NCBI RefSeq assembly: GCF_000708755.2
Contig: NZ_JGVU02000002.1
Coordinates: forward strand, 1,302,001-1,366,000
DNA length: 64,000 nucleotides
Direction: 5' to 3'
Source: Metabacillus indicus LMG 22858
GTDB lineage: Bacteria; Bacillota; Bacilli; Bacillales; Bacillaceae
This document shows positions 9,720-45,428 of the stretch, piece by piece. The translations under genes and the position numbers were made by a program. The notes beneath the pieces were generated by a model. That model searched no databases and was not told where the DNA came from. It was given only the letters and a program-made list of their open reading frames with translations. Every line of letters begins with the position of its first letter. Positions within the stretch are counted from its first letter, which is position 1.

Positions 9720-9967
9720 CGCTCCCTTTCGCTCCAGTCACTTGCTTTCCGCGGGGAGTGCCTGAAGCTTCCTCGCTGCGCTTGCGGGATCTTCAGTGCC
9801 CTCTTTATGCCCCAGAAAAGCGGAAGCGCCCGTTTTGCTCCGGCAGTCAGAAAAGAAATCACCCGAAAAGTCCGGTTTTGACTTTTTGGGGGATTTTGTT
9901 CTGACAGAGGAGTTGGGCGCTGGAGCTGGACAAGGAGTCAAGTGCCTTCCGCTGCAGTCCACTGGAG
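9720..9967 (+). repeat. Complete modular repeat element, copy 1 (A-B-C)
   Basis: About 248 bp in the deoC-mtaB gap. The ends read CTCCAGT and ACTGGAG. Module A (about 9720-9814) holds its own hairpin (CTGAAG...CTTCAG). Module B (9815-9932) is the hairpin core beginning GAAAAGCGGAAGCGCCC and ending GAGCTGGACA. Module C carries AAGTGCCTTCCGCTGCAG. Small ORFs across it on both strands are not convincing genes. It is nearly identical to the copy at 14510-14759. The rest of the gap is AT-rich with nothing else recognisable. Confidence 0.85.
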
Positions 9968-10038
9968 TTTTAATTTCGCTCGCTAAAACGTAAGTACTCT
10001 CTAAAATAAAACTTTACTTTTAGGAGCCTTTCAAAAGA

Positions 10039-10080
10039 AAAAAATCCGAACTAAGTAATTCCCAGTTCGGATTTTTCTTT
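10039..10080 (-). terminator. Terminator of the dnaK operon after mtaB
   Basis: AAATCCGAACT / AGTTCGGATTT arms with a T run on the minus strand just after the mtaB stop. Confidence 0.88.
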
Positions 10081-10086
10081 TGCTGT

Positions 10087-11454
10087 TTATGAAATTTGGC
10101 GGACCGCTTCAGCTGTGGTGTCTTCGTCCATGACGCGGACGAATTGTCCTTCTGAGTACGGGTAGCCTGCTTTTGTGATTTTTACTTTTACGATTTTGCC
10201 GACCATTTCTTCAGAAGCCGGGAATACGACTTTCAGATAGTTGTCAGTATATCCTACATAAAGGCCGCTCTCGGGAGATTCTTTGTACTCTTCTTCAGGA
10301 ATGACCTCAAGTACTTCTCCTTCGTAATCTGAAGCATATTCTTTTGCAAGCTGGTCTGACAGTGCAATCAGCTGATGAACGCGTTCGTTTTTAATCTCTT
10401 CGTCCACCTGATCTTCCATTCTTGCAGCAGGTGTTCCGGTACGTTTCGAGTACGGGAATACGTGAAGCTCGGAAAATTTGTGCTCTTTAATAAAGTTGTA
10501 GGTTTCCATGAATTCTTCTTCTGTTTCGCCAGGGAAGCCGACAATGACGTCAGATGTAACAGCAAGGCCCGGCAGCGCTTGTTTCAGACGCGTTAGACGC
10601 TCTGCGAAAAATTCCATTGTGTACTTGCGTCTCATTCTTTTCAGCACTGTGTTAGAAGCGGATTGAATTGGAATGTGCAGATGACGGACAATCTTGTCCG
10701 ACTGATCCAGTACTTCAATCACTTCGTCTGTAATTTGGCTTGCTTCAATAGATGAAATCCGGATGCGTTTCAGTCCTTTTACCCGTGCATCAAGATCGCG
10801 GAGAAGCATCGCAAAGTTGTAATCTTTCATATCTTCGCCGTATCCGCCTGTGTGAATGCCGGTCAGAACAATTTCTTTGTATCCAGCATCAACAAGCTGC
10901 TGAGCCTGATTGATGACTTCCTCAGGGTCACGTGAACGCATGAGTCCGCGTGCCCAAGGAATAATGCAGAATGTGCAGAAGTTATTGCACCCTTCCTGGA
11001 TTTTCAGGGAAGCACGTGTGCGGTCTGTGAAGGCAGGAACGTCCAGTTCTTCATAGACGCGCGCCTTCATGATGTTGCTGACGCCGTTGATTGGCTGTCT
11101 TTCTTTTTTGAACTGCTCGATATAATCAAGCATTTTAATGCGGTCGGATGTTCCAACTACAATATCGACTCCTGGAATAGCCATAATTTCAGCAGGAGAA
11201 GTTTGTGCATAACAGCCGGTTACACAGATGACGCCGTCCGGATTTTTTCTGATGGCGCGGCGGATGACCTGGCGGCTTTTTTTATCGCCCGTATTTGTAA
11301 CGGTGCATGTATTAATAACATATACGTCTGCTTTGCTTTCAAATTCAGACCGCTCATAGCCTGATTCTTTGAACAGCTGCCAGATCGCTTCTGTTTCGTA
11401 ATGATTTACTTTACAGCCAAGTGTATGAAAAGCTACTGTTGGCATGGGATTCAC
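10087..11454 (-). CDS. mtaB: tRNA (N6-threonylcarbamoyladenosine(37)) methylthiotransferase MtaB
   Basis: A 455-residue radical-SAM methylthiotransferase that converts t6A37 to ms2t6A37 in ANN-decoding tRNAs. The N-terminal UPF0004 domain has three cysteines for one cluster (GCK near 14, TCT near 50, GCY near 81). The radical-SAM motif CNNFCTFC is at about 155-162, and the TRAM domain is at the C-terminus (about 380-445). Its start overlaps the end of rsmE by four bases, so it closes the hrcA-grpE-dnaK-dnaJ-prmA-rsmE-mtaB series as in B. subtilis (yqeV). Confidence 0.96.
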   Translation of the reverse strand: MNPMPTVAFHTLGCKVNHYETEAIWQLFKESGYERSEFESKADVYVINTCTVTNTGDKKSRQVIRRAIRKNPDGVICVTGCYAQTSPAEIMAIPGVDIVVGTSDRIKMLDYIEQFKKERQPINGVSNIMKARVYEELDVPAFTDRTRASLKIQEGCNNFCTFCIIPWARGLMRSRDPEEVINQAQQLVDAGYKEIVLTGIHTGGYGEDMKDYNFAMLLRDLDARVKGLKRIRISSIEASQITDEVIEVLDQSDKIVRHLHIPIQSASNTVLKRMRRKYTMEFFAERLTRLKQALPGLAVTSDVIVGFPGETEEEFMETYNFIKEHKFSELHVFPYSKRTGTPAARMEDQVDEEIKNERVHQLIALSDQLAKEYASDYEGEVLEVIPEEEYKESPESGLYVGYTDNYLKVVFPASEEMVGKIVKVKITKAGYPYSEGQFVRVMDEDTTAEAVRQIS

Positions 11455-12206
11455 CTCGATAATTCAAAATGATAGGAAACAGCAGACAAAAGGTATAGAG
11501 GAGCCGTTTCCGTCCTTAAAATTCTTGGCCCAAGTCCGCAAAGGTTGAATCCTGCGGCTGTCAGCTGCTCTGTTTCTTCTTTCGTCAGGCCGCCTTCCGG
11601 TCCAAACACAGCAAGAACCGACTGCCCCGGACTGCACGACTGCAGCACCTTTGCAAGGTTCGACATCTCGCCTGTTTTGGCTGATTCCTCGTAAGCGGCA
11701 ATTTTATAATCATAAGACTCTGAATGTCTTAAAAGCTCTTTAAAACTTTGAGGCTCAGAAACATCGGGAATCACATTCCTGTACGATTGCTCTGAAGCTT
11801 CTTTCACGATCTTTCTCCAGCGGTCCGCTTTCTTGCCTGCTTTTTTTTCATCAAGCTTGACAACGGAACGGGCAGCATTAAAAGGGATAAACGAAGAAGC
11901 ACCAAGCTCAGTGCCCTTTTGGAAAATCCACTCGAGCTTATCCCCTTTAGGCAGCCCGCTCGCAATCGTGACCTTCACAGGCAGTTCATTGTCCGCATCC
12001 TGCCATTCCAGGACAGAACATACAACCGCATCTTCGTGAAGCTCTGCGATTTCACACAGCGCAGAAAAACCGTCTGCTGTACAGCAGACAATTTCATTGC
12101 CGGGCTTCATACGCATGACACGGGAGATGTGATGAACATCGTCTCCCGTGATGGTTATTCTGGATGGACTATTTTCTTTTGTTTCCTCGATAAAATAACG
12201 CTGCAC
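11451..12206 (-). CDS. rsmE: 16S rRNA (uracil(1498)-N3)-methyltransferase
   Basis: A 251-residue SPOUT-class methyltransferase. An N-terminal PUA-like domain (MQRYFIEE start, about residues 1-70) precedes the knotted SAM-binding domain with FGPEGGLTKEE and LGPRILRTETAPL, the RsmE signatures. The start is GTG at 12206 with AAGAGGTG upstream, 13 bases after prmA; a longer frame to 12281 runs back into prmA and lacks a site. RsmE methylates U1498 in the decoding region of 16S rRNA. Confidence 0.95.
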   Translation of the reverse strand: MQRYFIEETKENSPSRITITGDDVHHISRVMRMKPGNEIVCCTADGFSALCEIAELHEDAVVCSVLEWQDADNELPVKVTIASGLPKGDKLEWIFQKGTELGASSFIPFNAARSVVKLDEKKAGKKADRWRKIVKEASEQSYRNVIPDVSEPQSFKELLRHSESYDYKIAAYEESAKTGEMSNLAKVLQSCSPGQSVLAVFGPEGGLTKEETEQLTAAGFNLCGLGPRILRTETAPLYLLSAVSYHFELSR

Positions 12207-12219
12207 CGATGAGCACCTC

Positions 12220-13158
12220 TTATTTTTTTCTGGCGATAAAGGCCACCCAGTCTTCCATGACCACTGTTTCTTCAATCTCAAAACCGGCTTCGATCAGGCC
12301 ATTTCTGACTTCTGCCTTTTTGTTTAGGATAATGCCTGAAGTAATGAATAATCCGTCCTGCTTCAGGATTTGATTGGCGTCACCTGCAAATCTCAGAATG
12401 ACTTCAGCCAAAATATTCGCAACAACAACATCAACCGGCCCTTCGACACCGTTCAGGAGGTTGTTCTGTGTAACCGTGACTGTCTCATGCACTTTGTTGA
12501 GCTTTGTATTAAGCCGTGCCGCATCTACTGCAACCGGATCAAGATCCATTGCCTGTACATGTTTTGCCCCAAGCATTGCGGATGCAATGCTTAGAACGCC
12601 TGAACCGGTACCGACATCGACAACCGTGTCATTTTCTTTTACAGAGCGCTCAAGCGCCTGAATGCATAAAACGGTCGTCGGATGTGTTCCTGTGCCAAAT
12701 GCCATTCCAGGATCAAGCTCAATGATGAGCTCATCCGAATGGACGGGAGTATAGGTTTCCCATGTTGGAACAATTGTGAACCGCTCTGAAATTTTGACAG
12801 GGTGGTAGTACTTCTTCCAGGCTGTAGCCCATTCTTCCTCATTCACTTCACTGATTGATATATCATTCTTCCCTAAATCAATATCATGAATAAGCAGATT
12901 GTTCACAGCTTCTTTAATTTCTTCCACCGTTTCCCCGAGAAAACTGTTTACGGGAAGATATGCTTTAATAATAACACCTTCATCAGGATAATCATCAGAA
13001 TTGAGGTGGTAGATTTCTCCATACACACTTTCGCGCTCTTTTAACAGATCCATCTGATCTTCAATTACGACTCCGCTAGCTCCCGCCTCATGCAGGATAT
13101 TGGAAATCGGCTCAACCGCTTCCTGTGTTGTATGAATACTTAACTCAGACCATTTCAT
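12220..13158 (-). CDS. prmA: Ribosomal protein L11 methyltransferase
   Basis: A 312-residue protein with an N-terminal substrate-recognition domain (about 1-100) and a Rossmann-fold SAM domain. The motif [20 protein letters not shown] is at about residues 177-196 and the NPPY-like motif [10 protein letters not shown] near 240. PrmA trimethylates L11. It lies 20 bases downstream of dnaJ, the conserved Bacillus order. Confidence 0.96.
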
Positions 13159-13178
13159 TCTACCAGCTCCACTTCTGT

Positions 13179-14294
13179 TTATTCACCCTTGAAAGCACGT
13201 TTCACTTTATCAAAAAAACTTTCTTCATGCTCATCCGGTCTGCCGCCGCTCATTTCAGCAAATTCGCGCAGCAGTTCTTTTTGTTTTTCATTAATATTAG
13301 TAGGTGTAAGCACCCGGATAACAATGTGCTGATCTCCCTGGCCATAGCCGCGCACATTCGCGACGCCTTTGCCCTTCATGCGGAATTTGGTGCCCGTTTG
13401 TGTACCTGCAGGCACCTTCAGCTTCACTTTGCCGTGAAGGGTCGGAACCTCAATTTCATCTCCAAGAGCAGCCTGTGCAAATGTCAGAGGCATTTCGCAG
13501 TAGATGTCATCGCCGTTGCGTTCGAAAAACTCATGAGGCCTTACATTAAAGACAACATAAAGGTCTCCTGCTGGACCGCCGTTTACGCCTGGCTCACCCT
13601 GTCCGGATACTCTCAGCTGCTGGCCGTCATCAACACCGGCAGGAATCTTAACCGAGATTTTCTTGCGCTTCTGCACTTTTCCGGCTCCGCCGCATGTTGA
13701 ACATTTGTGTTTGATTTGTTTGCCTGTCCCGCTGCAGTAATGACATACTCTGCGGTTGACAATTCTTCCAAATGGCGTGTTCTGTTCAACGTTCAGCTGG
13801 CCTGAACCGCTGCAGTGCGAACAGGTTTCAGGTTTTGTTCCGGGCTTGGCTCCGGATCCGTCACACGTGTCACATGTTTCTTCTCGCGGAATTTCGATGG
13901 TTGTTTCTTTGCCGAATACAGCTTCTTCAAAGGCAATCGTCATTGTATACTGCAGGTCTGCACCCTGTCTCGGCGCATTAGGGTCGCGTCTTCTTCCGCC
14001 TCCGAAAATAGAGCTGAAGATATCGTCAAAACCGCCGAATCCTCCGCCAAAGTCAGAACCGCCAAAGCCCTGATTTGGATCAGCATGGCCGAATTGATCG
14101 TATTGAGCCCGTTTTTGGTCGTCAGAAAGGACTTCGTATGCTTCTGTAATTTCTTTAAATTTATCTGAAGCGTCTGCTTCTTTGTTAATATCAGGATGAT
14201 ATTTTTTTGACAGCTTGCGGTACGCTTTTTTCATCTCATCCTTAGACGCGCTCTTACTTACTCCAAGCACTTCATAGTAATCACGCTTGCTCAT
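13179..14294 (-). CDS. dnaJ: Chaperone DnaJ
   Basis: A 371-residue type I Hsp40. The J domain (residues 1-70) has the HPD motif (KKYHPDINK). A Gly/Phe-rich linker follows (about 75-105), then four CxxCxGxG zinc-binding repeats ([32 protein letters not shown] at about 145-210) and the C-terminal substrate domains. It stimulates the DnaK ATPase and delivers substrates. Unusually, 567 bp with a terminator and an inserted repeat separate it from dnaK, so it may depend less on the CIRCE promoter than in relatives. Confidence 0.97.
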
Positions 14295-14509
14295 AATTGC
14301 TCACTCCCGAATTCTCACATAAAGTAAATTGTATCACTCGATTTGGCATGATTGCAAGATAATGTTTGTGGGGGTCATTCTGTACCTATACATTATTCTT
14401 GGCAGCTGAAAGTGTCTTTGTTTCTCAATAAAAAATGAACACCTTGTCAGCACGCGCTCTTTGCAGATTGAAGATTGCTTTCGCATAGAGTGCTGTTTTT
14501 GCAATCGTA

Positions 14510-14759
14510 CCCGTTCCTTTCCGCTCCAGTCACAAGATTACCGCGGGGAGTGCCTGAAGCTTCCTCGCTGCGCTTGCGGGATCTTCAGTGCCCTCTTTAT
14601 GCCCCAGAAAAGCGGAAGTGCCCGTTTTGCTCCAGCAGTCAGATAAGAAATCACCCGAAAAGTCCGGGTTTGACTTTTTGGGGGATTTTGTTCTGACAGA
14701 GGAGTTGGGCGCTGCAGCTGGACAAGGAGGCAAGTGCCTTCCGCTGCAATCCACTGGAG
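14510..14759 (+). repeat. Complete modular repeat element, copy 2, between dnaK and dnaJ
   Basis: Same A-B-C structure and orientation as the element at 9720-9967, with only scattered differences. The hairpin core is 14607-14724. It lies inside the heat-shock operon between dnaK and dnaJ. The adjoining 14295-14509 is AT-rich with no gene visible. Confidence 0.85.
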
Positions 14760-14811
14760 TTTGACGGATTCACACTAAAGCAACATTATCTGCGAAAAGA
14801 GCCTCATCAAA

Positions 14812-14845
14812 AAAAGCCAAAGTCAAGACAAGCCTGACTTTGACT
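14812..14845 (-). terminator. Terminator after dnaK
   Basis: On the minus strand AAAGTCAGGCTTGTCTTGACTTT forms a 7-bp stem followed by GGC and a long T run. It lies just after the dnaK stop and upstream of the inserted repeat. Confidence 0.75.
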
Positions 14846-14861
14846 TTCGGGATGGCGACAT

Positions 14862-17313
<2,452 letters not shown>

Positions 17314-17398
17314 TTTCTTTCACCTCCCTTAAAGGATAAACATCATGGAAAGGAGCGGAAAACGGTTTTTCCGCTCTCTTACAATATGGACAATTGTT

Positions 17399-18427
17399 TT
17401 ACGAGTGATACAAATTTGTCAGCGCCTTGGACATGTCTTTTGTCACTCTCTGCAGCAGGCTGATAACCCGCGAATATTCCATTCTCGTCGGGCCAAGCAC
17501 GGCAATGCGGCCGATCTGCCTGTTGTCAACGGAGTAGGTTGCGGTGATCAGGCTGCAGTTTTCCATTGCGATATTTTCATTCTCTTTGCCAATTTTAATT
17601 GTTATGCCTGAATCGTTGGCATTTAAAATATTGTATAGTTCCTGTTCCTGTTCAATCATCGTAAGCAGCGTTCTGACCCTTGAGATGTCATTGAATTCAG
17701 GCTGACTGAGCATGTTTGTCTTTCCGCCGAAATAGATCTTTTCATTGCTGTTCAGCGTAAACGTTCCAGTAAGCACCTTCATGACAGCGTCATAATTCTG
17801 GATATGATTTTTCAGGAGACTGACGATTTCTTTATAGATTTTGTCATGCAGCTCCACAATCGGCACATTAAAGAGCCTCTCATTTAAAATATTGACCATC
17901 TTCTCAATATCCTGGGGAGCTATGCTTTCGGGAAACGAAATCGTTCTGTTCTCTACATGTCCGGTATTTGTCACGATAATGGCAACAGCCGTATCGTCAT
18001 TGATTGGAACGATCTGAATGCGCTTGAGCCGGTTTTCGTTCACCTTTGGACCGAGAATAATCGATGTATAGTTTGTCAGATCCGATAAGATCTGCGCAGA
18101 TTTCTGAACGACTTTTTCAAGTTCAAATATACGTTCTGCAAACACAGATTTAATTGTGACAACATCCATATTCGATAGCTTCTGCGGTGCAAGAAGGTTG
18201 TCGACATAGTAGCGGTACCCCTTTTCAGAAGGAACTCTTCCAGAGGAACTATGTGTTTTCTCAATAAACCCCATATCTTCAAGATCGGCCATCTCATTGC
18301 GGATGGTAGCCGAACTGAACGTGATCGAATCCTTTTTGGACAAGGTCCTTGAGCCTACAGGCTGTGCAGACTGAATAAAATCATCCACAATGACCTGAAG
18401 GATTAAAAGCTGACGATCTGTTAGCAT
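17399..18427 (-). CDS. hrcA: Heat-inducible transcription repressor HrcA
   Basis: A 342-residue repressor beginning [17 protein letters not shown] chose the ATG at 18427 because AGAGGTGA precedes it and it matches the family start; a frame to 18448 would begin inside the operator. The N-terminal winged helix (about 1-75) binds CIRCE, and a GAF-like middle and dimer domains follow. HrcA represses its own operon and depends on GroE for activity. It is the first gene of the dnaK operon. Confidence 0.97.
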
Positions 18428-18441
18428 TATCATCACCTCTG

Positions 18442-18468
18442 TTAGCACTCTGTATGTGTGAGTGCTAA
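18442..18468. promoter_or_regulatory. CIRCE operator
   Basis: TTAGCACTC, a 9-base spacer and GAGTGCTAA form a perfect match to the HrcA-binding inverted repeat. It lies between the promoter and the hrcA start, so HrcA would repress the whole hrcA-grpE-dnaK operon. Confidence 0.97.
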
Positions 18469-18479
18469 ATCTATAATAA

Positions 18480-18508
18480 AAAGTATCAAATCACTCGTGA
18501 AATGTCAA
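18480..18508 (-). promoter_or_regulatory. Sigma-A promoter of the hrcA operon
   Basis: TTGACA (18503-18508), a 17-base spacer and TACTTT (18480-18485) on the minus strand; the start point would fall at the edge of CIRCE. Confidence 0.82.
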
Positions 18509-18570
18509 TTATTTAGACGAAATTCTCATGCCAGATCAGGCAAAAATACAAAGAGGAAGAAAAGAACTGA

Positions 18571-19728: not shown

Positions 19729-19745
19729 ATTTCTCACCTTCTAAT

Positions 19746-19775
19746 AAAGAAGCCGCAGTACACGACTGCGGCAGT
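19746..19775 (-). terminator. Hairpin between lepA and hemW
   Basis: GCCGCAGT and ACTGCGGC arms around CGTGT, followed on the minus strand by only a weak T-rich tail. It may reduce rather than stop read-through from lepA into hemW. Confidence 0.55.
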
Positions 19776-19824
19776 AGTTTTTTCTTACAATATCACAGAT
19801 TTCCGGGGACTCAAAATCATTTGA

Positions 19825-21651: not shown

Positions 21652-21729
21652 AATCGTTCTATCACTCCTACTAAACTGGCCAATGCACTAACTTTGATTA
21701 TAACAATAGGGGGGGGAACATTCAACACC

Positions 21730-22105
21730 GAAAAGCGGAGCCTTCCGGTTAGCTCCGACAGACAGATAAGAATTCACCCGAAAAGGCCGGTTTTTGCCTT
21801 TTTGGGGGAATTTGTTCTGGCCGAGGAGTTGGAAGGCGGAGCTGGACATACGAAAAGCGGAATCGCCCGGGCAGCTCCGGGAGTCAGATAAGGAGGCGGC
21901 AGAAAAGGCGCTTTTTGCCTTTACTGACGGATCCGTTCTGACAGAGGAGTTGGGCGATGGAGCTGGACATCACCGAAAAGCGGAGGGGCCCGTTTAGACC
22001 TGGCAGGCAGATAAGAAATCACTGAAAAAGGCAGGGTTTGCCTTTTTCGGGGATTTTGTTCTGACAGAAGGTCTGGGCACCGGAGCTGGACATCACCGAA
22101 AAGCG
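21730..22105 (+). repeat. Tandem array of three hairpin-core (B) repeat units
   Basis: Units start with GAAAAGCGGA at 21730, 21852 and 21975, spacing 122-123 bp, each ending GAGCTGGACA; a fourth stops soon after 22098. No A or C module is present. Each unit folds into the same long hairpin as the dispersed cores, with compensating changes in the arms (GCCTTCC/GGAAGGC, ATCGCCC/GGGCGAT). No gene is visible here. Confidence 0.85.
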
Positions 22106-22149
22106 GAATCGCAACAATTTGTATCTGGATTATGCCCTACAACTTACTT

Positions 22150-22404
22150 CTTCTTCTCTGAAGGGCACATTCTTGCCTTGTCTTCTCCCATCAGTTCACT
22201 TCCTCTTCTCTGAAGGGCACATTCCTGCCTGGTTTTCGACCTTCAGCTTACTTCCTTTTCTCTGAAGGGCACATTCCTGCCTGGTTTTCGACCTTCAGCT
22301 TACTTCCTTTTCCCTGAAGGGCACATTCCTGCCTGGTTTTCGACCTTCAGCTTACTTCTTTTTCCCTGAAGGGCACATTCGTCCCCGGTTTTCGACCTTC
22401 AGCG
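22150..22404. repeat. 52-bp direct tandem repeat, five units
   Basis: CTGAAGGGCACATTC begins at 22158, 22210, 22262, 22314 and 22366, an exact 52-bp period. Units 2-4 are nearly identical, and the outer units have diverged. Each contains CTGAAGG...CCTTCAG, a 7-bp inverted repeat. There are no variable spacers, so it is a minisatellite and not a CRISPR array. The array fills the rest of the lepA-yqxA gap. Confidence 0.92.
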
Positions 22405-22454
22405 ATCATCAAGCATCTTAAGGGCTCAATACACTTTTCACTTCTGCCCTTCAT

Positions 22455-22496
22455 AATCCCCAAAAAAAAAAAAAGGAAAGCAGCTGCCCGCTTCCC
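22455..22496 (-). terminator. Probable terminator after yqxA
   Basis: On the minus strand a GC-rich imperfect hairpin around CAGCTG is followed by thirteen T residues. The stem has mismatches; the T run is the stronger evidence. Confidence 0.65.
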
Positions 22497-22518
22497 TCCA
22501 TCTTATGCAGTATCCCCC

Positions 22519-22860: not shown

Positions 22861-22884
22861 CGTACGTCCCTCTAATCTGATTGC

Positions 22885-31827: not shown

Positions 31828-31862
31828 GAAAAAAAACCATCAAAAAAAATGATGGTTTTTTA
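31828..31862. terminator. Bidirectional terminator between comER and yqeM
   Basis: AAAAAACCATCA / TGATGGTTTTTT arms with A and T runs, between convergent genes. Confidence 0.93.
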
Positions 31863-31865
31863 GTG

Positions 31866-34108: not shown

Positions 34109-34123
34109 CCTTCAGCCTCCTTG

Positions 34124-35253: not shown

Positions 35254-35268
35254 AAGAATCTCTCCCCG

Positions 35269-36375: not shown

Positions 36376-36377
36376 GT

Positions 36378-36893
36378 TTAATCCTCCCACTGAATCAAGC
36401 CTTTTCTTTTCAGAACAGCAAGAATTCTTCTTTCAATTTTGCGGTTAAGTCTCGTTACAAAACCGTCAGTAGATGCAACAGGCACGACTAAAATCGTATG
36501 AAAACCGTTGCGGTTGCCGCCAAGGACATCTGTCAGCAGCTGATCGCCAATCACAACAACATCCTTTTTATCAAGCTCCATGTTTTTCAGAGCTCTGCGG
36601 AATGCTTTGCCCATCGGTTTTCTTGCTTTATAGATGAAAGGAATTTGAAGGGGATCTGAGAAAGAGCGCACCCGTTTTTCTACATTATTAGAAACAATGG
36701 TAACCTTGATGCCATGTTCTTTTACATCTTTGAACCATTCAATAAGTTTCGGAGTGGCACTTGGACGGTCCCATTCTACCAGGGTGTTGTCAAGGTCGGT
36801 GATGATGCCTTTTACTCCTCTGTCTTTTAATGCCTGTGGAGAGATTTCATAAATATTCTTCACGTACTCTCCCGGCAGAAATAATTTCAACAT
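36378..36893 (-). CDS. yqeG: HAD-family phosphatase YqeG (HAD IIIA)
   Basis: A 171-residue HAD phosphatase. Motif I is GIITDLDNTLVEW, with DxD nucleophiles near 33-35; motif II is VSNN and motif IV GDQLLTDVLGGN. The family acts as phosphatidylglycerophosphatase in some bacteria. First gene of the yqeG-yqeM operon, whose promoter should lie in the gap just upstream, next to the DnaA boxes. Confidence 0.93.
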   Translation of the reverse strand: MLKLFLPGEYVKNIYEISPQALKDRGVKGIITDLDNTLVEWDRPSATPKLIEWFKDVKEHGIKVTIVSNNVEKRVRSFSDPLQIPFIYKARKPMGKAFRRALKNMELDKKDVVVIGDQLLTDVLGGNRNGFHTILVVPVASTDGFVTRLNRKIERRILAVLKRKGLIQWED

Positions 36894-37035
36894 TCTATAA
36901 ACACCTCATCGGACATTTTTTAGCCAAACTACATCATATCTGATTTTAATCTTTCTTTCAAAAGAAACTTGGCATTCTGCAGAAATTCAGAAGAAATCCG
37001 GTAAATTTTTCGACAAAATGTTCGGCCTTCCGTTC

Positions 37036-37135
37036 TGTGGATAAGTCTATTCACATTGTTCACTCATATAGATTCCTCTGCTGATAGGATTATAAACAAG
37101 ATATTAACAGCTTATCCACTTTCTTCTGTGGATAA
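37036..37135. promoter_or_regulatory. DnaA-box cluster upstream of sda
   Basis: Two perfect DnaA boxes in reverse orientation, TGTGGATAA at 37036-37044 and 37127-37135, and one near-perfect TTATCCACT at 37112-37120. They precede sda, whose transcription is DnaA-controlled in B. subtilis. The spacing is too loose for a replication origin. The rest of 36894-37273 shows only a weak sda promoter (TTGTTC / TAGATT). Confidence 0.85.
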
Positions 37136-37273
37136 CAGAACGATTGTTCTATTTTATATTTCGTGTTAGATTGGATTTACTAGAAGAAAATAACATAAAA
37201 GTATATGCATGGTGCTTACTTTATAGAACATTATTTCCATAATGGAGGTGCAAGCCGGCAAGCCGGCGATCCT

Positions 37274-37414
37274 ATGAGAAAACTTTCCGATGAACTGCTC
37301 ATTGAATCCTACTATAAAGCGACAGAAATGCAGCTGAGCGAAGATTTTATAGAACTGATCAAAAAAGAGATCAAACGCCGGTCATTGACTCACGTTTTAA
37401 AAGCTTCGAGCTGA
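37274..37414 (+). CDS. sda: Sporulation checkpoint inhibitor Sda
   Basis: A 46-residue helical-hairpin protein: [19 protein letters not shown] then the second helix ending in [13 protein letters not shown]. It inhibits the sporulation kinase KinA when replication is blocked. I chose the ATG at 37274 for family length. The nearest GGAGGTG is about 24 bases upstream, separated by two GCCGGC palindromes that could fold and bring it closer. A 12-codon frame from 37240 ends in a stop overlapping the sda start (ATGA). A longer in-frame start at 37205 has no ribosome-binding site. Confidence 0.92.
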
Positions 37415-37434
37415 CTTTTAAAACGTGAAGCTCT
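37398..37434 (+). terminator. Terminator overlapping the end of sda
   Basis: CACGTTTTAAAAG / CTTTTAAAACGTG, a 13-bp perfect stem whose loop contains the sda stop, followed by a T-rich tail broken by C residues. The gap on to 37837 (about 400 bp) holds a second A/T-flanked hairpin (AAAAAGGAG / CTCCTTTTT near 37525-37570) and otherwise nothing I can identify. Confidence 0.72.
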
Positions 37435-37837
37435 CTTCTTTTGCGCTTATCAGCCAATCCCGCGAAAACCTTAACCTCTCCCCGAGACTCTGCAAATGCC
37501 GCTTTATTCTTTTCAAAAAGGAGAACAGCAGCCGGTCCAAAAAATAAGCCAGCTCCTCTCCTTTTTCATCCTTTCCTTAGCATGAGTCAATTCAATCGTA
37601 TTTATAAACAGCGCCTGGCTTAACATGGATTGATGATTAACCTGGACGAATCACATGATTTGGGTTATCATCAAATGTTCATGCTTCTTTTTTCATGCTT
37701 ATTTATAAAGAAATCATTGGAAAATTATTGTTATAAATGTTCATCCTCCAAAAAAATATCTTTACTACTGTCAATATCATGCATAGAATAAAAGTAGGCC
37801 TGAATAGGTCATTTATGCTATTTAAGGAAGTGCCATT

Positions 37838-38377
37838 ATGTTTTTAGCAGGCTATATCGATGCCACATTAAAAAAAATAAAAGCAAATACCGCCAACATG
37901 CTGACCCTTGTGAATCTTGGACTGGGCGGCTTCGCCATTATCTATACTCTTAACGACGTGCTGAAGCTGAGTCTTCTGCTTATTTTTCTTGCTGCTCTTG
38001 CTGACAGGTTTGACGGAATGGTTGCCAGAAAATTCAACATCGAGTCCGAACTCGGCAAACAATTGGATTCAATGAGTGATATTATATCATTTGGTGTTGC
38101 TCCGGCACTACTTATTTATAAAGGAATTCTTTTTGAGCTCGGGGCGCCGGGAGCTTTTTTCGCCGTTTTATTTATAGGATGCGGTGCTTTCAGACTTGCC
38201 AGATTTAACATTACAGATAACTGCGGATTTTTCAGTGGACTGCCAATAACAGCAGCCGGATGCATCGCCACCCTCAGTTATTTATGGAAAGACTTCATGC
38301 CGGTGCATTCCTATATGTTCCTTCTGATGATTCTTTCTTTTTGTATGATCTCATCCTTCAGAATCCGCAAAATGTAA
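37838..38377 (+). CDS. pssA: CDP-diacylglycerol-serine O-phosphatidyltransferase
   Basis: A 179-residue membrane protein with about six helices. It has the CDP-alcohol phosphotransferase signature, D-G-x2-A-R-x8-G-x3-D-x3-D, starting DRFDGMVARKF near residue 51 and ending QLDSMSDIISFG. It makes phosphatidylserine, the precursor of phosphatidylethanolamine. No psd (decarboxylase) is adjacent. Its place beside sda differs from B. subtilis. Confidence 0.9.
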   Translation: MFLAGYIDATLKKIKANTANMLTLVNLGLGGFAIIYTLNDVLKLSLLLIFLAALADRFDGMVARKFNIESELGKQLDSMSDIISFGVAPALLIYKGILFELGAPGAFFAVLFIGCGAFRLARFNITDNCGFFSGLPITAAGCIATLSYLWKDFMPVHSYMFLLMILSFCMISSFRIRKM

Positions 38378-38406
38378 AAAACACCTCAGCCGAGGTGTTT
38401 TTTTTT
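38378..38406. terminator. Bidirectional terminator after pssA
   Basis: AAACACCTC / GAGGTGTTT arms around AGCC, followed by eight T residues; the small minus-strand gene ends right behind it. Confidence 0.92.
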
Positions 38407-38408
38407 GG

Positions 38409-38576
38409 CTATTTGCAGCAATAGTTATTGTAGTAATAGCCTCCTCCTAAAACAAGCAGCAGGATCAGCAATACGACAATAAAAGCGTACCAATAGCCAA
38501 AGCCCGCGTAAGGTGCATAGGGATAAGGATAAGGATATGGTGCAGGCGGTCCGTAGAATGGTGTGCAAGAGCGCAT
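38409..38576 (-). CDS. YjcZ-type small glycine/tyrosine-rich sporulation protein
   Basis: A 55-residue ORF with a perfect AAAGGAGG site seven bases before its ATG. The N-terminus is a Pro-Tyr repeat (PYPYPYPYAPYAG), then one hydrophobic helix (FIVVLLILLLVLGGG), then YYYNNYCCK. This resembles the YjcZ/CotX-adjacent family of tiny mother-cell proteins, in which a Gly/Tyr/Pro head joins a single helix. No symbol can be assigned. It was below the usual length cut-off. Confidence 0.78.
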   Translation of the reverse strand: MRSCTPFYGPPAPYPYPYPYAPYAGFGYWYAFIVVLLILLLVLGGGYYYNNYCCK

Positions 38577-38767
38577 GAGTAAGACCTCCTTTTAAACTGT
38601 TCCCTCTAAATTATGTGACACTCAACTAATTGGTATAGGCTATAGCCATAGATTGTCAGCTCATTTAATAAATATTGCCTATTTTTCAAAAAAAGGGTTT
38701 ACAATTTATCCTTTCGTGGATATAATTACCATTGTAATCAAAACTACGAAAAGGGAGGTCGAATCAA

Positions 38768-38848
38768 ATGTCAATCATGTCAGTGTCAGCACAATGGAAT
38801 GCAGCTCAATTGAATACACGTCTATTCGGCCGAACTGGTAAACGGTAA
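38768..38848 (+). CDS. Possible 26-residue peptide
   Basis: An open frame MSIMSVSAQWNAAQLNTRLF and a basic end GRTGKR, preceded by AAAGGGAGG at good spacing and followed 20-odd bases later by a terminator hairpin, giving a self-contained unit. It has no predicted membrane segment. I do not recognise it. It shares strand and setting with the yrzI-type ORFs downstream but not their sequence. Confidence 0.5.
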   Translation: MSIMSVSAQWNAAQLNTRLFGRTGKR

Positions 38849-38866
38849 TTATCCTATTGTCCTTAC

Positions 38867-38905
38867 CGCCGCAGGTTGAGTAGCACTCTCCTGCGGCGTT
38901 TTTAT
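38867..38905 (+). terminator. Terminator after the 26-residue ORF, with a second similar hairpin behind it
   Basis: CGCCGCAGG / CCTGCGGCG followed by TTTTT. A near-copy (CGCCACAGG...CCCTGCGGCG then TTTTTG) lies at about 38928-38958, suggesting a local duplication. Confidence 0.82.
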
Positions 38906-38983
38906 GTCCATTTTTATAAAACGCGACACGCCACAGGTATGCCCTGCGGCGTTTTTGTGTTCTCTGGGGATTTTGAACAGCCT

Positions 38984-39088
38984 CTCCAGTGGATTGCAGC
39001 GGAAGGAACTTGACTCCTTGTCCAGCTGCAGCGAGGAAGCTTCAGGCACTCCCCGCGGAAAGCAAGTTCCTGGAGCGAAAGGGAACGG
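38984..39088 (-). repeat. Modular repeat element without core (A-C form), inverted
   Basis: Begins CTCCAGTGGATTGCAGCGGAA (module C reversed) and ends in GCAAGTTCCTGGAGCGAAAG (module A reversed). It lacks the 118-nt hairpin core and part of A. Same family as 9720-9967, opposite orientation. Confidence 0.75.
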
Positions 39089-39144
39089 CTGCACTGCAAT
39101 CAATATTAAAATTGGTTTTAACCATTTAAAGGAGGTGAGAAAAA

Positions 39145-39285
39145 ATGACGATCAACTTATTATTTGTATCACTTACAATCAACCGCAGAAAACAGACGCT
39201 TGAACAAGTGCAGCATGAAGAACAAGTTTTCAAATCTTACGAAGCCATGCAGAATAAATGCTTCCAAATGTATAACGGCATCTAA
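39145..39285 (+). CDS. YrzI-family tandem small protein, copy 1
   Basis: A 46-residue ORF with AAAGGAGGTGAG upstream: MTINLLFVSLTINRRKQTL, then a charged helix ending KCFQMYNGI. It is about 80% identical to the next ORF. It matches the Bacillus tandem small-protein family exemplified by YrzI, thought to be sporulation-linked; the role is unknown. The amphipathic N-terminus followed by a charged helix suggests membrane association, an inference. Confidence 0.8.
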   Translation: MTINLLFVSLTINRRKQTLEQVQHEEQVFKSYEAMQNKCFQMYNGI

Positions 39286-39328
39286 TGAACAGGAAAAAAC
39301 ATCAAAGAAAAACAGGAGGTGAAACTAT

Positions 39329-39469
39329 ATGACGATCAACCTATTGTTTGTAAGTCTGACAATCGAACGCAGAAAAAAATCAATCGAAGAGATCCACCAC
39401 GAAGAACAAGTCTACAAATCTTATGAAGCCATGATGAACAAATGCTTCCAAATGTATAACGGAAACTAA
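39329..39469 (+). CDS. YrzI-family tandem small protein, copy 2
   Basis: A 46-residue paralogue of the preceding ORF, with MTINLLFVSLTIERRKKSI at the start and KCFQMYNGN at the end, and its own AACAGGAGGTG site 43 bases after copy 1. No separate promoter is seen, so the copies are likely on one transcript ending at the terminator before sigK. Confidence 0.8.
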   Translation: MTINLLFVSLTIERRKKSIEEIHHEEQVYKSYEAMMNKCFQMYNGN

Positions 39470-39508
39470 CACCCCACCATACTTAAAAAACGAAAGGAGA
39501 GAGCGAAA

Positions 39509-39565
39509 ATGATGATTCAAATGAAACTCAGAATGCACCTTAATGTGGAGAAGGATTCTGACTAG
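39509..39565 (+). CDS. Possible 18-residue peptide in the yrzI-type cluster
   Basis: MMIQMKLRMHLNVEKDSD, with GAAAGGAGAGAG upstream. It could be a decayed third yrzI-type copy or an independent peptide. The strong ribosome-binding site is the main support. Confidence 0.4.
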   Translation: MMIQMKLRMHLNVEKDSD

Positions 39566-39606
39566 CACGGGCGGAGCCGACCGTTTAGCCCTGACATAAA
39601 CCAATA

Positions 39607-39644
39607 CAAAAAGCGAAGATCTTTTTAAAGATCTTCGCTTTTTT
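39607..39644. terminator. Bidirectional terminator between the small-ORF cluster and sigK
   Basis: AAGCGAAGATCTTT / AAAGATCTTCGCTT, a 14-bp stem with a 2-3-nt loop and flanking A and T runs, between convergent units. Confidence 0.93.
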
Positions 39645-40384
39645 CATCCCTTCCCCTTTTGCCGGCCCTTCTGCTGGCCCTTTTTTTCCTTTTCCGCCCT
39701 GTAAAATTCATGGAACATTTTCATGAGTGCCCTCTTTTCGATCCTCGACACGTAACTCCTTGAGATGCCCAGCTCCTTTGCGATTTCCCGCTGCGTTTTC
39801 TCTTTTTGCAGGTCAAGGCCGAATCTGCCTACAATGACTTCTTTCTCCCGTTCATCCAGAATATCGATAAATTCTTTTACTTTTTCTAGTTCCATGTTCA
39901 GCTGAATCGTATCGATGACGTCTTCTGACTCTGATTTCAGCACGTCAATCAGGCTGATTTCGTTCCCCTCTTTATCCTGGCCGATCGGATCATGAAGGGA
40001 GACGTCCTTTTTGGTTTTCTTTAATGCCCTCAGATGCATGAGGATTTCATTTTCAATACATCTTGCCGCGTACGTAGCGAGCTTTGTGCCCTTGCCTTCT
40101 GAATAGCTTTCAATTGCTTTTATCAGACCAATCGTGCCGATTGAAATAAGGTCCTCCGAGTCCTCGCCGGTATTTTCAAATTTCTTGACGATGTGCGCCA
40201 CCAGCCGCAGATTGTGCTCGATCAGCATATTACGGGCATGCTCATCCCCTGTTGCCATCAGCCTTAAGTATTTTTTTTCTTCGCTTGCTGACAATGGCTG
40301 AGGGAAGGCATTGTTTTTGACATAAGATACTAAAAAGACCAGCTCTTTTAATAAGTATCCTAATGCAGCTAAAACTCCTGACAT
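39644..40384 (-). CDS. sigK: RNA polymerase sporulation sigma factor SigK, uninterrupted
   Basis: A 246-residue sigma-70 family factor for late mother-cell transcription. I chose ATG at 40384 ([20 protein letters not shown]) with GGAGGTGG upstream. The hydrophobic N-terminus is the pro-sequence removed by SpoIVFB. Region 2 has [18 protein letters not shown] and [15 protein letters not shown]; region 4 has the helix-turn-helix [23 protein letters not shown]. The frame is continuous, so no skin-like element splits it. Confidence 0.95.
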
Positions 40385-40621
40385 TGACCCACCTCCACGA
40401 ACAGATTGTAGGCAGCTGCCTATAATCAAGTCTATGTCCGGAAGGGTGTGAAAGTGTCTGTACTACGAAAGATTGCGGAAGTCCTTCCAGTTTTTCACCA
40501 AAAATGAAGCGCATACATTATGACATTTTTGAAAACTCTATTGATTCTTCCTTCTTTTTCATCAATAATGAATGCTGGTGCTGTCAAGCCCTTGGCCATC
40601 TTATGTTGGAGGTTGTTTTTT

Positions 40622-41368
40622 TTGAAAAAATACTTGTCTCTCGCTGCTTTTCTTTTGTTTTTTCTGCTGCTGATCAGCTGCGGAAACCGATCAGATAGAT
40701 ATACCATTGTTGCCTTTGGCGACAGCAACACGCGCGGAGCAAACTGGACCATCCGAAATTATCAGGATACAGATAAATGGGTAAACCTCGTCAAATCCAC
40801 TCTCCCTGTAAACGATGGACAGACGTTCATTCATAATGCAGGAGTAGGAGGAGAAACGACTGAGGATGCAAGAAAACGGTTTAGACGGGATGTGCTGAAC
40901 ACAAAACCCGATCTTGTTTTCATCATGTTTGGAACGAATGATGCTGTGATTCTGCCAAACGGGCAGCCAAAAGTCACACACAGCCGCTTCAGGGAAAATC
41001 TGCTTTACTATGTAAATGAGATTAAAAAGAACGGCGGAAAACCCGTTCTGATGACATGCCTTCCTATAGTTGAAGGAAACGGCCATGACAAGCTTTACTA
41101 CACGAGATATCCGAAAAAACTCTATTCCCATACAGACGGGGCACGGAACTGGCATAATTCCTATAATGACATTACCCGCGAAATTGCGTTTAAAAATGAC
41201 ATCACCTTAATTGACAACTGGACGACCATGGTGCAGGCTGCCGGAGGCGACTCTGATGAACTGCTGCTTAAAGCAGGAATTATTGACCCATCCGGAAATC
41301 ATATGACTCCGCATGGAGCAAAGCTGATCTATGAATCCATCTTAAAGAGCAAGGTGCTTAACCAATAA
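40622..41368 (+). CDS. yqeF: GDSL-type lipase/esterase lipoprotein (YqeF-like)
   Basis: A 248-residue lipoprotein. I chose TTG at 40622 after GGAGG: it gives a proper signal peptide (KKYLSLAAFLLFFLL) with lipobox LISC. The longer frame to 40520 adds an unlikely 34 residues. SGNH hydrolase blocks: GDSNTRG (Ser), GVGGETT (Gly), FGTNDAV (Asn) and DPSGNHMTPHG (Asp/His). Substrate unknown. Divergent from sigK; ends at its own terminator. Confidence 0.85.
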   Translation: MKKYLSLAAFLLFFLLLISCGNRSDRYTIVAFGDSNTRGANWTIRNYQDTDKWVNLVKSTLPVNDGQTFIHNAGVGGETTEDARKRFRRDVLNTKPDLVFIMFGTNDAVILPNGQPKVTHSRFRENLLYYVNEIKKNGGKPVLMTCLPIVEGNGHDKLYYTRYPKKLYSHTDGARNWHNSYNDITREIAFKNDITLIDNWTTMVQAAGGDSDELLLKAGIIDPSGNHMTPHGAKLIYESILKSKVLNQ

Positions 41369-41402
41369 AAAGAACCCGTTCAGATAAGAACGGGTTCTTT
41401 GT
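41369..41402 (+). terminator. Terminator of yqeF
   Basis: AAAGAACCCGTTC / GAACGGGTTCTTT arms followed by a short T-containing tail; A-rich upstream, so it may also serve the opposite strand. Confidence 0.85.
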
Positions 41403-41415
41403 TTATAGTAGAAGA

Positions 41416-41586
41416 CTATGCCTGATCCTGCTCATCCAGCCGTTTCTTGTATGCCAGAGAACGTTTAAAGCAGTAAAAGGCCCCTATAAGAAAAAGTCCA
41501 GTTGTGACCTGCCTGAATATGTGTCTATAAAAACCTTAACATATCAGAGCAGGCAATGATGCAGGCAAATACAGGCAGCAGAGGAA
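41416..41586 (-). pseudogene. Remnant of a yrhC-like gene
   Basis: Directly after mccB the minus strand still encodes RHIFRQVTTGLFLIGAFYCF, then KRSLAYKKRLDEQDQA and a stop. It has no start codon in frame. A hydrophobic stretch (IPLLPVFACIIACSD) sits upstream in another frame, broken by stops. Hydrophobic segment plus KRS-YKK-L tail and position match YrhC, the last gene of this operon in B. subtilis. The N-terminus is missing. Confidence 0.5.
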
Positions 41587-43654
<2,068 letters not shown>

Positions 43655-43693
43655 TCCTGTGATAAGAATGTCTGCACTCTTATCCTGTTATCC

Positions 43694-43730
43694 TTAAAAA
43701 AGAGGATCATTGCGATCCCCTCTGTTTTTA
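43694..43730 (-). terminator. Intra-operon terminator between mtnN and mccA
   Basis: On the minus strand AGAGGGGATCGCAATGATCCTCT, with paired arms, is followed by six T residues just after the mtnN stop. It should lower expression of mccA-mccB relative to yrrT-mtnN unless bypassed. Confidence 0.75.
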
Positions 43731-44426
43731 GCTTTTTAATGCACGGACAATGCTTAAAACAAGCTCTGCGGAATTTTTTGCAGCTGTTTCCAAGTATTGT
43801 TCGAATGATACATCCGATTCTTTTCCTGCAATATCAGACAAAGAGCGGATGATGACAAACGGTACGCCGAATTGATGGGCAGTCTGGGCTATGGCCGCAG
43901 CCTCCATCTCAACTGCGTATAGGTTTTCAAATTTTGTTCGGATGTATGCGACTCTTTCAGGATCATTCATAAACGAATCACCGGTGGCAATCAGACCTTT
44001 CACAACCTGAATCCCTTCCTGTTCCTGAGCCTGCTCGGCAGCAATTGCAACCAGCTTTTCATCCGGAAGGAAAGCAGCCGGCATGCCGGGCACTTGACCG
44101 TATTCGTAGTTAAATGCTGTCACATCTACATCGTGATGTCTTACTTCTGTAGAAATGACGACGTCTCCAACATTCAGGGAATGATGAAAACCTCCAGCTG
44201 AACCTGTGTTAATGACCACATCAGGTTTGAAGCGGTCAAGCAGGATAGCAGTGCTTACGGAAGCATTTACCTTCCCAATTCCTGATTTCAGAAGGATAAC
44301 GTCCATCCCGCTGTATGTTCCAGTTGTAAATTCGCTTCCTGCGATCGTTTCTGTTTTTGCATGTTCAAGCTGATCTCTTAAAATAGAAACTTCTTCTTCC
44401 ATTGCTCCAATGATGGCTGCTTTCAT
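43728..44426 (-). CDS. mtnN: 5'-methylthioadenosine/S-adenosylhomocysteine nucleosidase
   Basis: A 232-residue purine nucleosidase starting [23 protein letters not shown] at 44426 with AAAGGA 11 bases upstream. A longer frame to 44516 begins inside yrrT. Catalytic residues are E12 (AMEEEV), E in [12 protein letters not shown] and D in SLSDIAG. It frees adenine from MTA and SAH, feeding homocysteine supply for mccA. Confidence 0.95.
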
Positions 44427-44488
44427 TTGTTGTTCCATTCCTTTCAAAAGGGGTTTTTGGCCGGCATCAGCCTGAAACGCTGTCGGTA

Positions 44489-45133
44489 TTATTTTTTTAC
44501 GGCTTCTATCAGCCACACAAATTCGTTGAGCTGCGTGAAGTCGGCAGTGAATGAATGTTTTTCAAGGATGCCGCGCATGACTGAATGTGTTGTGTAATAT
44601 TCTGTTTCAAGGTCGGCTGCCAAGTTTAAGTAGTGCTGTTTTTTTGCTTTTTCAATCATGGACTTGTAAGCCTTCTGATCTTCAAACATTGTGTCAGCAA
44701 ACACTATTTTACCACCTTTGCCGAGAAGACGGGCATAAATTGCGACAGCTTTCTCTTTTTCTTCATCTGTTAAATGATGAAACGCATACGTACTAACAAC
44801 CGTGTCTATTTCCCCTTTTGGAACAGGGAAGGTGAGAAAATCACCGTCGCTGATCTGAGCCTTGTTTCCAAGCTTTTCAGCTGCTTTTTCTCTCATCGTC
44901 TTCGATGGTTCGATTCCGTAGACCTGCTTTCCTTTATTCAGCAGTTCTGCTGTCAGGTTGCCGGTTCCGACTCCGAATTCAAGGACGAATTTACCAGATT
45001 TGGATGCTACAGCTTCAAGAATGGCGCTGTAGCCGCTGAACACATCTTTATATTCTTCATCATGTCCGACTACAGTCGAATCATACGAGTGAGCCCAATC
45101 TTCAAATAGTTCTACAAACTCTCTTCCCATCAT
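44489..45133 (-). CDS. yrrT: Class I SAM methyltransferase YrrT
   Basis: A 214-residue methyltransferase with motif [17 protein letters not shown] near residue 50 and [10 protein letters not shown] as motif II. Substrate unknown. First gene of yrrT-mtnN-mccA-mccB; its start could be 45133 or 45130 (tandem ATGs, AAAGGA upstream). Likely controlled by CymR. Confidence 0.9.
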
Positions 45134-45154
45134 GCACCAATCCTTTGATGATAA

Positions 45155-45195
45155 TTTAAATAATTCCTATGTGTATACTATGATTTAAAAATAGA
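45155..45195 (-). promoter_or_regulatory. Probable CymR-type operator and promoter of yrrT
   Basis: The minus strand reads TAAATCATAGTATACACATA then GGAATT. The ATAGGAATT half and the upstream TAAATC resemble the CymR site of sulfur genes, with spacing that does not fit exactly. TATACA may be the -10, with a TTCTAT-like -35. In B. subtilis this operon is CymR-repressed. Confidence 0.5.
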
Positions 45196-45276
45196 ACTGT
45201 TCTTAATTTACCACACGGTTTGTTTAACAGGCAATGAAAAGACTTTCCAGAAGGGTATTTTATGAGATATTCTATA

Positions 45277-45428
45277 GAAAAGCGGAAGCGCCCGTTTTAC
45301 TCCGGCAGTCAGATAAGAAATCACCCGAGAAGTCCGGGTCCCGCCTTTTTGGGGGATTTTGTTCTGACAGTAGAGCCTGAGCGCTGCAGCTGGACAAGGT
45401 GTCGAGTGCTTTCCGCTAAAGTCCACTA
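45277..45428 (+). repeat. Modular repeat element, core plus right end (B-C form)
   Basis: Hairpin core 45277-45396 begins GAAAAGCGGAAGCGCCC and ends CAGCTGGACA, then a degraded module C (AGTGCTTTCCGC...GTCCACT). Module A is missing. In the yrrT-yrzA gap. Confidence 0.82.

What the first reader, a model, noticed from the sequence alone, without database searches (positions are those of the whole stretch)
9815..45396. A ~118-nt repeat core whose hairpin is kept by compensating base changes
Seen directly: the core (9815-9932, 14607-14724, 21730-21848, 21852-21969, 21975-22092, 45277-45396) has nested arms. At 9815 the outer arms are AGCGCCC / GGGCGCT, the middle GTCAG / CTGAC and AAATCACCC / GGGGGATTT, the inner AAAAGTC / GACTTTTT. 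In other copies both sides change together: GCCTTCC / GGAAGGC, AATTCACCC / GGGGGAATT and AAAAGGC / GCCTTTTT at 21730; ATCGCCC / GGGCGAT at 21852; AGACCT / AGGTCT at 21975; a G-T pair at 14607. Covariation across copies means the fold, not just the sequence, is under constraint, or is needed for mobility. Possible meanings: a structured RNA, a REP/MITE-type element moved in trans, or a target of single-strand processing. No transposase is present in this window.
Basis: partly seen in the sequence, partly recalled or inferred. Interest (0 to 1): 0.75.

Follow-up and report, generated by a model that had tools for sequence, protein, structure and literature searches.

The report
Mobile DNA hairpin oriented by replication
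A 118-letter DNA repeat that folds into a hairpin, present in over a hundred copies in this bacterium and widespread among its Bacillus-like relatives, keeps its fold by matched mutations, comes and goes between close relatives, and nearly always points against DNA replication, which suggests an undescribed mobile element tied to the replication fork.

Summary
All six copies lie at the stated coordinates and fold better than every shuffle. I count 113 copies at 78 loci in the genome. In 139 distinct sequences from Bacillales, 37 of 39 pairs show two-sided changes; 25 of 39 pass a home-made tree-based null. Watson-Crick pairs change to G-T about twice as often as to A-C while unpaired transitions lean the other way, so the constraint is on one single strand.

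The core moves or is copied between sites. Against a ~95% identical congener it is precisely absent at two orthologous outer-repeat sites and precisely present at two others. New here: orientation follows replication, not transcription. 70 of 75 loci oppose the fork, 8 of 9 even between two lagging-strand genes; 77-78 of 85 do in a closed congener; other genera are weaker.

RAYT/Y1 is not needed: five of six congeners lack Y1 yet have 89 or more copies. Single copies mostly decay.

Best reading: a non-autonomous, fork-coupled structured repeat with an unknown mover. Rfam and my literature searches gave no match.

The parts
9815..9932 (+). 118-nt core, composite type, nested in the outer repeat between deoC and mtaB; absent at the orthologous outer repeat of G004
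9725..9814 (+). 5' part of the outer repeat (33 matches in the genome)
9933..9968 (+). 3' part of the outer repeat (AGGAGTCAAGTGCCTTCCGCT...CACTGGAG); end read by eye
14607..14724 (+). 118-nt core, composite type, nested in the outer repeat between dnaJ and dnaK; absent at the orthologous outer repeat of G004
14516..14606 (+). 5' part of the outer repeat around the 14607 copy
21730..21848 (+). unit 1 of a three-unit array upstream of lepA
21852..21969 (+). unit 2 of the array
21975..22092 (+). unit 3 of the array; G004 also has three units here, in other sequence versions
22098..22112 (+). 3'-truncated unit (GAAAAGCGGAATCGC) that closes the array
   Evidence: by eye; pattern counted
45277..45396 (+). 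core followed by only the 3' half of the outer repeat; partly decayed fold; also present in G004
59370..59459 (+). outer repeat without core; the orthologous G004 site carries the core at the same position
39028..39082 (-). outer-repeat remnant with an internal deletion that joins it to the 3' end of a core (AGCTGGACAAGGAGTC)
39569..39596 (+). fossil part of a unit where G004 has a six-unit array

Best explanation
A member of a Bacillales family of non-autonomous, structured interspersed repeats. SHOWN: a ~118-nt imperfect hairpin with near-fixed ends (GAAAAGCGGA...AGCTGGACA); pairing kept on one strand; intergenic; singles and tandem arrays whose unit number differs between close relatives; precise presence/absence at orthologous sites; orientation against the replication fork regardless of neighbouring genes. 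INFERRED: an unidentified trans-acting activity recognises the folded single strand (ssDNA or an RNA copy) and places copies at the fork, so that the folded strand gets the polarity of the nascent lagging strand (equally, of the leading-strand template), beside an AT-rich TAANAA-like flank or at a fixed place in the outer repeat. Recombination between direct repeats then grows and shrinks arrays, and gene conversion may carry the core between outer repeats. The fold is kept because only foldable copies spread; copies left in place decay.
For: Covariation. One-strand fold: WC to G-T against WC to A-C 93:47, 52:19, 52:27 on three trees, unpaired transitions leaning the other way. Mobility: G000+/G004- at 9815 and 14607, G000-/G004+ at 59370 and beside dnaA, always at CCCGC/AGGAGTC; B-type copy of about 175 nt missing at L024 in G004; unit numbers differ at 17 of 34 shared loci. 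Fork: 70 of 75 loci opposed, p 1e-15, in all three gene settings; G004 77-78 of 85; 38 of 55 and 12 of 16 in two other genera. The 12 of 13 best-scoring copies with known fork direction are already polarised. Fork-linked orientation is known for IS200/IS605, Tn7 and clamp-binding IS (PMC5371812, passages).
Against: The folded strand points opposite to the IS608 active strand. Most comparable loci are shared by G000 and G004 (34 of 37, a sample enriched for filled sites), so fresh insertions are few, and the four outer-repeat cases could be short-tract gene conversion. G021 is not significant (p 0.08) and G032 (69%) does not exceed a gene-orientation effect. At orthologous loci G-T still exceeds A-C (18:6), a hint of local selection. 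The array upstream of lepA is in all seven Metabacillus-type genomes.
Confidence: 0.57

Rival explanations
1. The copies are functional structured RNAs or cis-acting RNA elements made from the given strand and kept at their loci for a host function.
For: Strong covariation with G-U tolerated on one strand; order-wide range; the lepA-upstream array is in all seven congeners; G-T over A-C 18:6 even at orthologous loci.
Against: In 13 orthologous copy pairs 29 of 52 changed stem pairs are broken in one copy and only 4 are two-sided changes. Flanks are not conserved, so no own promoter is visible. Unit numbers vary. No Rfam match. Orientation follows the fork rather than gene strand.
Confidence: 0.2
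2. The hairpin is a polar chromosomal signal (for replication, repair or segregation) and wrong-way copies are removed by selection.
For: Polarity of over 90% toward the origin in two genomes; the composite type also lies beside dnaA in G004.
Against: One sister genus (5 genomes) has none and copy numbers range from 0 to over 100; best-scoring, presumably young copies are already polarised; polarity is much weaker in G032.
Confidence: 0.1
3. The covariation is mutational: hairpin template switching at forks copies one arm onto the other.
For: Blocks of both arms change together; outer-repeat arms differ in both arms between G000 and G004.
Against: G-T against A-C asymmetry opposite to the unpaired columns; internal loops stay open and a tandem GA/AG mismatch is kept in 14 rows; orthologous copies seldom show two-sided changes (4 of 52).
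Confidence: 0.05
4. It is a REP/REPIN family moved by a RAYT (Y1) transposase.
For: One Y1 gene in this genome that resembles the REP-associated model; hairpin, high copy, intergenic, fork link.
Against: That gene is flanked by a different palindrome and scores 67.4 against a cut-off of 80. Five of six congeners lack PF01797. The core is 118 nt without the GT[AG]G foot of canonical REPs (PMC6006769, passages).
Confidence: 0.04

Closest known systems
BOX elements of Streptococcus (PMC3049150, passages read)
   Same: Structured, intergenic, non-coding repeat with a variable number of tandem modules that differs between strains.
   Different: BOX, RUP and SPRITE mirror coding bias with 60.8-63.3% on the leading strand; here over 90% oppose the fork in two genomes. 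BOX is boxA-boxB(n)-boxC with different end modules. No sequence comparison was made.
REP/BIME/REPIN with RAYT (TnpA_REP) (PMC6006769, passages read)
   Same: Hairpin, many extragenic copies, single-strand processing and fork link proposed.
   Different: 118 nt, no GT[AG]G foot, no dependence on a Y1 gene.
IS200/IS605 (IS608) and their non-autonomous derivatives (PMC5371812, passages read)
   Same: Fork-linked orientation, no target duplication seen, short AT-rich left flank, single-strand fold matters.
   Different: No Y1 gene in five of six congeners; the folded strand has the polarity opposite to the lagging-strand template.
bcr1-bcr18 repeats of the Bacillus cereus group (PMC6542083, passages read)
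   Same: 100-400 bp interspersed repeats of Bacillus, bcr1 in tens of copies, mobile features.
Bhal-1 of Bacillus halodurans (PMC2267715, passages read)
   Same: Intergenic stem-loop family with 36 copies in a related genus; could be part of this family.
   Different: Listed as 74 nt; no sequence in the text held, so not tested.

Membership tests
REP/REPIN with RAYT | Short palindrome (20-40 nt) with a GT[AG]G foot | tested here: not met
   Unit is 118-119 nt and starts GAAAAGCGGA or CAAAAG; criterion from PMC6006769 and PMC3733652 (passages and listing)
REP/REPIN with RAYT | A tnpA_REP/RAYT gene flanked by the repeat in genomes that carry it | tested here: not met
   No PF01797 match in G001, G002, G004, G005, G006 with 89-91 matches each, a ceiling; the own Y1 gene is flanked by another palindrome
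IS200/IS605 derivative | Y1 transposase supplied in trans by the host genome | tested here: inconclusive
   Absent from five of six congeners, but it could have been lost after the spread
IS200/IS605 derivative | Active (folded) strand in the lagging-strand template | tested here: not met
   The folded strand, by G-T asymmetry, opposes the fork at 70 of 75 loci
IS200/IS605 derivative | Insertion without target duplication | tested here: met
   Four empty/filled outer-repeat sites, at most one ambiguous base
MITE of a DDE transposase | Terminal inverted repeats and a target-site duplication | tested here: not met
   Ends pair over 3 bp only (AGC/GCT); no duplication beyond one base
Known structured RNA family | Match to an Rfam model at its gathering score | tested here: not met
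   Only a T-box elsewhere in the window; weak FsrA-like hits on the other strand, 27.8 and 21.8 bits against 80
BOX-like modular repeat | Tandem module number varies between relatives | tested here: met
   17 of 34 shared loci differ in unit number between G000 and G004
bcr repeats | Homology to a bcr1-bcr18 consensus | not testable with these tools
   No consensus in the texts seen
Bhal-1 | Homology to the 74-nt Bhal-1 family | not testable with these tools
   No sequence in the text seen

The most novel reading that the evidence does not exclude
A new mode of mobility: a folded single-stranded copy of the element (ssDNA, possibly cDNA of a transcript) is built into the nascent lagging strand like an Okazaki fragment. 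The folded strand would then always run against the fork, the reverse of IS608, without a Y1 transposase, and one host or retron-like activity would serve a repeat family across the whole order.
Probability: 0.15. Interest if true: 0.9.

Novelty: new variant of a known kind. Interest (0 to 1): 0.64.

Why it matters
It looks like an order-wide family of structured repeats without an Rfam entry and without a description in what my searches listed (the library lacks most subscription journals). Polarity against the fork of over 90% in two genomes is far stronger than the 61-63% leading-strand share reported for pneumococcal repeats, and of opposite sign. If confirmed, the copies are a natural record of replication-coupled insertion, could show origins, termini and past inversions in draft genomes, and point to an unknown enzyme that handles single-stranded DNA or RNA in Bacillus relatives.

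Tried and rejected
RAYT/Y1 as the mover: no association. Orientation as a by-product of gene strand: rejected for G000 by the flank table; not separable for G032 and G021. Phages and plasmids: no match with blastn. Viral contigs: 39 pattern hits, best R2 E-value 0.04, taken as chance. FsrA-like similarity is far below cut-off and on the other strand. A recurrent neighbour gene was sought among 500 ORFs within 1.5 kb of copies: the largest clusters span 10, 7 and 7 loci (the second runs through the arrays themselves); I did not profile these clusters, so this is a weak negative.

Rows dropped or capped: the 114th row of A4 is a reverse-strand echo, dropped from orientation, context and orthology counts (113 used) but present and in the A4 tree. 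Three of 78 G000 loci (contigs C8, C9) were left out because fork direction is unknown. One search lists the best 150 matches of G004 (149 on the chromosome used); one search finds 177 in the stretches held, 150 of them in A7. One search covers 37 of 78 G000 loci, those with both flanks in held G004 DNA, a sample enriched for filled sites. In one search the match count per genome is capped at 91.

Weak points: the tree null is my own script with 40 simulations; genes are longest non-overlapping ORFs; fork direction in G000 comes from GC skew of the fetched pieces, by contig arm; in G004 the terminus at 3.96 Mb was chosen from the switch itself, so 77 of 85 is the cleaner figure; chromosome sizes of G032 and G021 are rounded; insertion-flank and empty-site boundaries were read by eye. 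One search (plain DNA) gave 66 matches and missed the 21730-22092 copies, so the model searches replaced it.

Full report
OBSERVATION. Each folds into a long interrupted hairpin that beats all 200 shuffles; in the 45277 copy the outer arms have come apart. A plain DNA search gives 66 matches in the genome, a covariance model (R1, 118 positions, 39 pairs) 121, including a few reverse-strand echoes. From 73 fetched stretches and the window I work with 113 copies at 78 loci. None of the 113 overlaps an ORF of 200 aa or more; three overlap ORFs of 150-199 aa, one of them the 45277 copy.

COVARIATION. In the genome's own copies 93.2% of cells pair, 26 of 39 pairs have changes on both sides (shuffles 18.5) and the covariation score is 0.323 against 0.152. 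In a broad alignment of 145 matches (139 distinct) from the window, congeners and named species (among them Rossellomorea, Metabacillus, Mesobacillus, Neobacillus, Cytobacillus, Priestia, Sporosarcina, Planococcus, Lysinibacillus, Geobacillus) 37 of 39 pairs have two-sided changes; the score is 0.654 against 0.186 shuffled and at most 0.12 with slid partners. My version (FastTree tree, Fitch substitutions re-dealt along branches, G statistic with APC, 40 simulations) gives 25 of 39 pairs at E<0.05, with 5 other column pairs that are neighbours of helix pairs or adjacent columns. It is not R-scape and the alignment was fitted to the structure, but the signal is large.

WHICH STRAND FOLDS. On the given strand, Watson-Crick pairs change to G-T 93 times and to A-C 47 times on the broad tree, 52:19 on the own-genome tree and 52:27 on the G004 tree. 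The corresponding transitions in unpaired columns lean the other way (123:146, 53:78, 36:61; Fisher p 7e-5, 9e-6, 3e-4). So the given strand is the one whose single-stranded fold matters, as RNA or ssDNA. Strand-symmetric processes such as template switching do not predict this. A tandem GA/AG mismatch in 14 rows and internal loops that stay open also speak against simple perfecting of palindromes.

MOBILITY. The copies at 9815 and 14607 sit inside a second repeat (33 matches) that also occurs without the core. Congener G004 (lepA 95% identical) has that outer repeat at both orthologous sites and lacks the core there; conversely the outer repeats at window 59370 and beside dnaA carry the core in G004 and not here. 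The position is the same each time (CCCGC/AGGAGTC), with no duplication beyond one ambiguous base. Outer-repeat arms also differ between the genomes, so short-tract gene conversion is a possible carrier. A second type (B, 20 copies that start CAAAAG, with an AT-rich tail of about 55 nt) is missing, about 175 nt, from G004 at L024. Of 37 G000 loci with both flanks in held G004 DNA, 34 are filled in both, 33 of these in the same orientation and one mixed, and 3 are empty in G004; unit number differs at 17 of the 34. Linkers are short (90 of 113 are 4 nt) and 20 of 43 non-composite loci end in a truncated unit by a strict pattern; the first unit of A-type loci follows a TAANAA-like flank (A at -1 in 74 of 96 distinct flanks). 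Nothing was found in plasmids, phages or viral contigs at the sensitivity used.

ORIENTATION. Of 75 loci with inferred fork direction, 70 oppose the fork (p 1e-15). The effect does not follow transcription: 32 of 35 between two leading-strand genes, 8 of 9 between two lagging-strand genes, 26 of 27 in mixed settings, and 4 of 4 with one flank known. In the closed congener G004 (dnaA at 1.80 Mb) 77 of 85 loci oppose the fork with an antipodal terminus and 78 of 85 with the terminus at the observed switch, while 76% of sampled coding bases run with the fork. Two other genera lean the same way: 38 of 55 (p 0.006) and 12 of 16 (p 0.08); these could reflect gene orientation alone. Of the 14 best-scoring own copies (134 bits or more) 13 have a known fork direction and 12 oppose it; the exception, L048, is a locus shared with G004.

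LOCUS OR LINEAGE SELECTION. In 13 orthologous copy pairs 52 stem pairs differ: 29 broken in one copy, 18 kept through G-T, 4 changed on both sides, 1 unpaired in both. Single steps from a Watson-Crick pair gave 18 G-T, 6 A-C and 18 other. Copies mostly decay in place, so the constraint acts mainly on spreading lineages. The G-T excess at these loci, and the array upstream of lepA that is present in all seven Metabacillus-type genomes (weak, 42 bits, in G003), leave room for some local function.

RANGE. 32 of 40 relatives and 18 of 22 genera have matches; one sister genus (5 genomes) has none. In a phylum sample 6 of 398 genomes match, this one and a congener included, all in the same class (stricter filters).

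MECHANISM. Fork-linked orientation is documented for IS200/IS605, Tn7-TnsE and IS whose transposases bind the sliding clamp (PMC5371812, passages), so fork-coupled insertion is the natural reading. Here, however, the folded strand points against the fork: it has the polarity of the nascent lagging strand or the leading-strand template, opposite to IS608. A Y1/RAYT enzyme is not needed in the present genomes: G001, G002, G004, G005 and G006 have 89-91 matches (91 is a ceiling) and no PF01797 match. I favour a non-autonomous structured repeat placed at forks by an unknown activity. The enzyme and the intermediate are inference.

KNOWN OR NEW. No Rfam family. The literature searches (listings) showed no paper that describes it. 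The bcr repeats and Bhal-1 could not be compared by sequence. I file it as a new variant of a known kind, structured interspersed repeats, with unusual polarity.

Noticed in passing
window 57883-58091 (-): T-box leader (Rfam RF00230, 103.1 bits).
   Followed up: no
L009 1288-1326 and 1961-2010 (G000 C6 near 508 kb): A single Y1 transposase of REP-associated type lies between two GGGGTCAGTCCC-type palindromes, a separate REP-like family.
   Followed up: partly
G000 C5:76891-76980 and G004 C1:1802941-1803058: A copy of the outer repeat lies next to dnaA, in the likely origin region, in both genomes; only G004 carries the core in it.
   Followed up: partly
3' flanks of type B copies, e.g. L038, L058, L091: The AT-rich tail of type B copies often contains TTATCCACA, which resembles a DnaA box (recalled motif), and B copies often start a few bases after a same-strand stop codon.
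   Followed up: no
window 22140-22500: Another tandem repeat (TTCTCTGAAGGGCACATTCCTGCC...) follows the array upstream of lepA; G004 has fewer copies there.
   Followed up: no
L103 and L105, downstream of outer-repeat copies: Further tandem repeats (CGAAAGTGTTCC... and GTTGAGGGCACTTATCAGGAAG...) lie directly beside outer repeats.
   Followed up: no
G000 ends of contigs C5, C6, C8, C22: Contigs end within about 20-70 bases of composite copies, so the assembly breaks at them and the true copy number is probably higher.
   Followed up: no
orthologous outer repeats (window 9815 and 14607 sites, dnaA site): Arms of the outer repeat's small hairpin differ on both sides at once between G000 and G004, which looks like gene conversion.
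   Followed up: no
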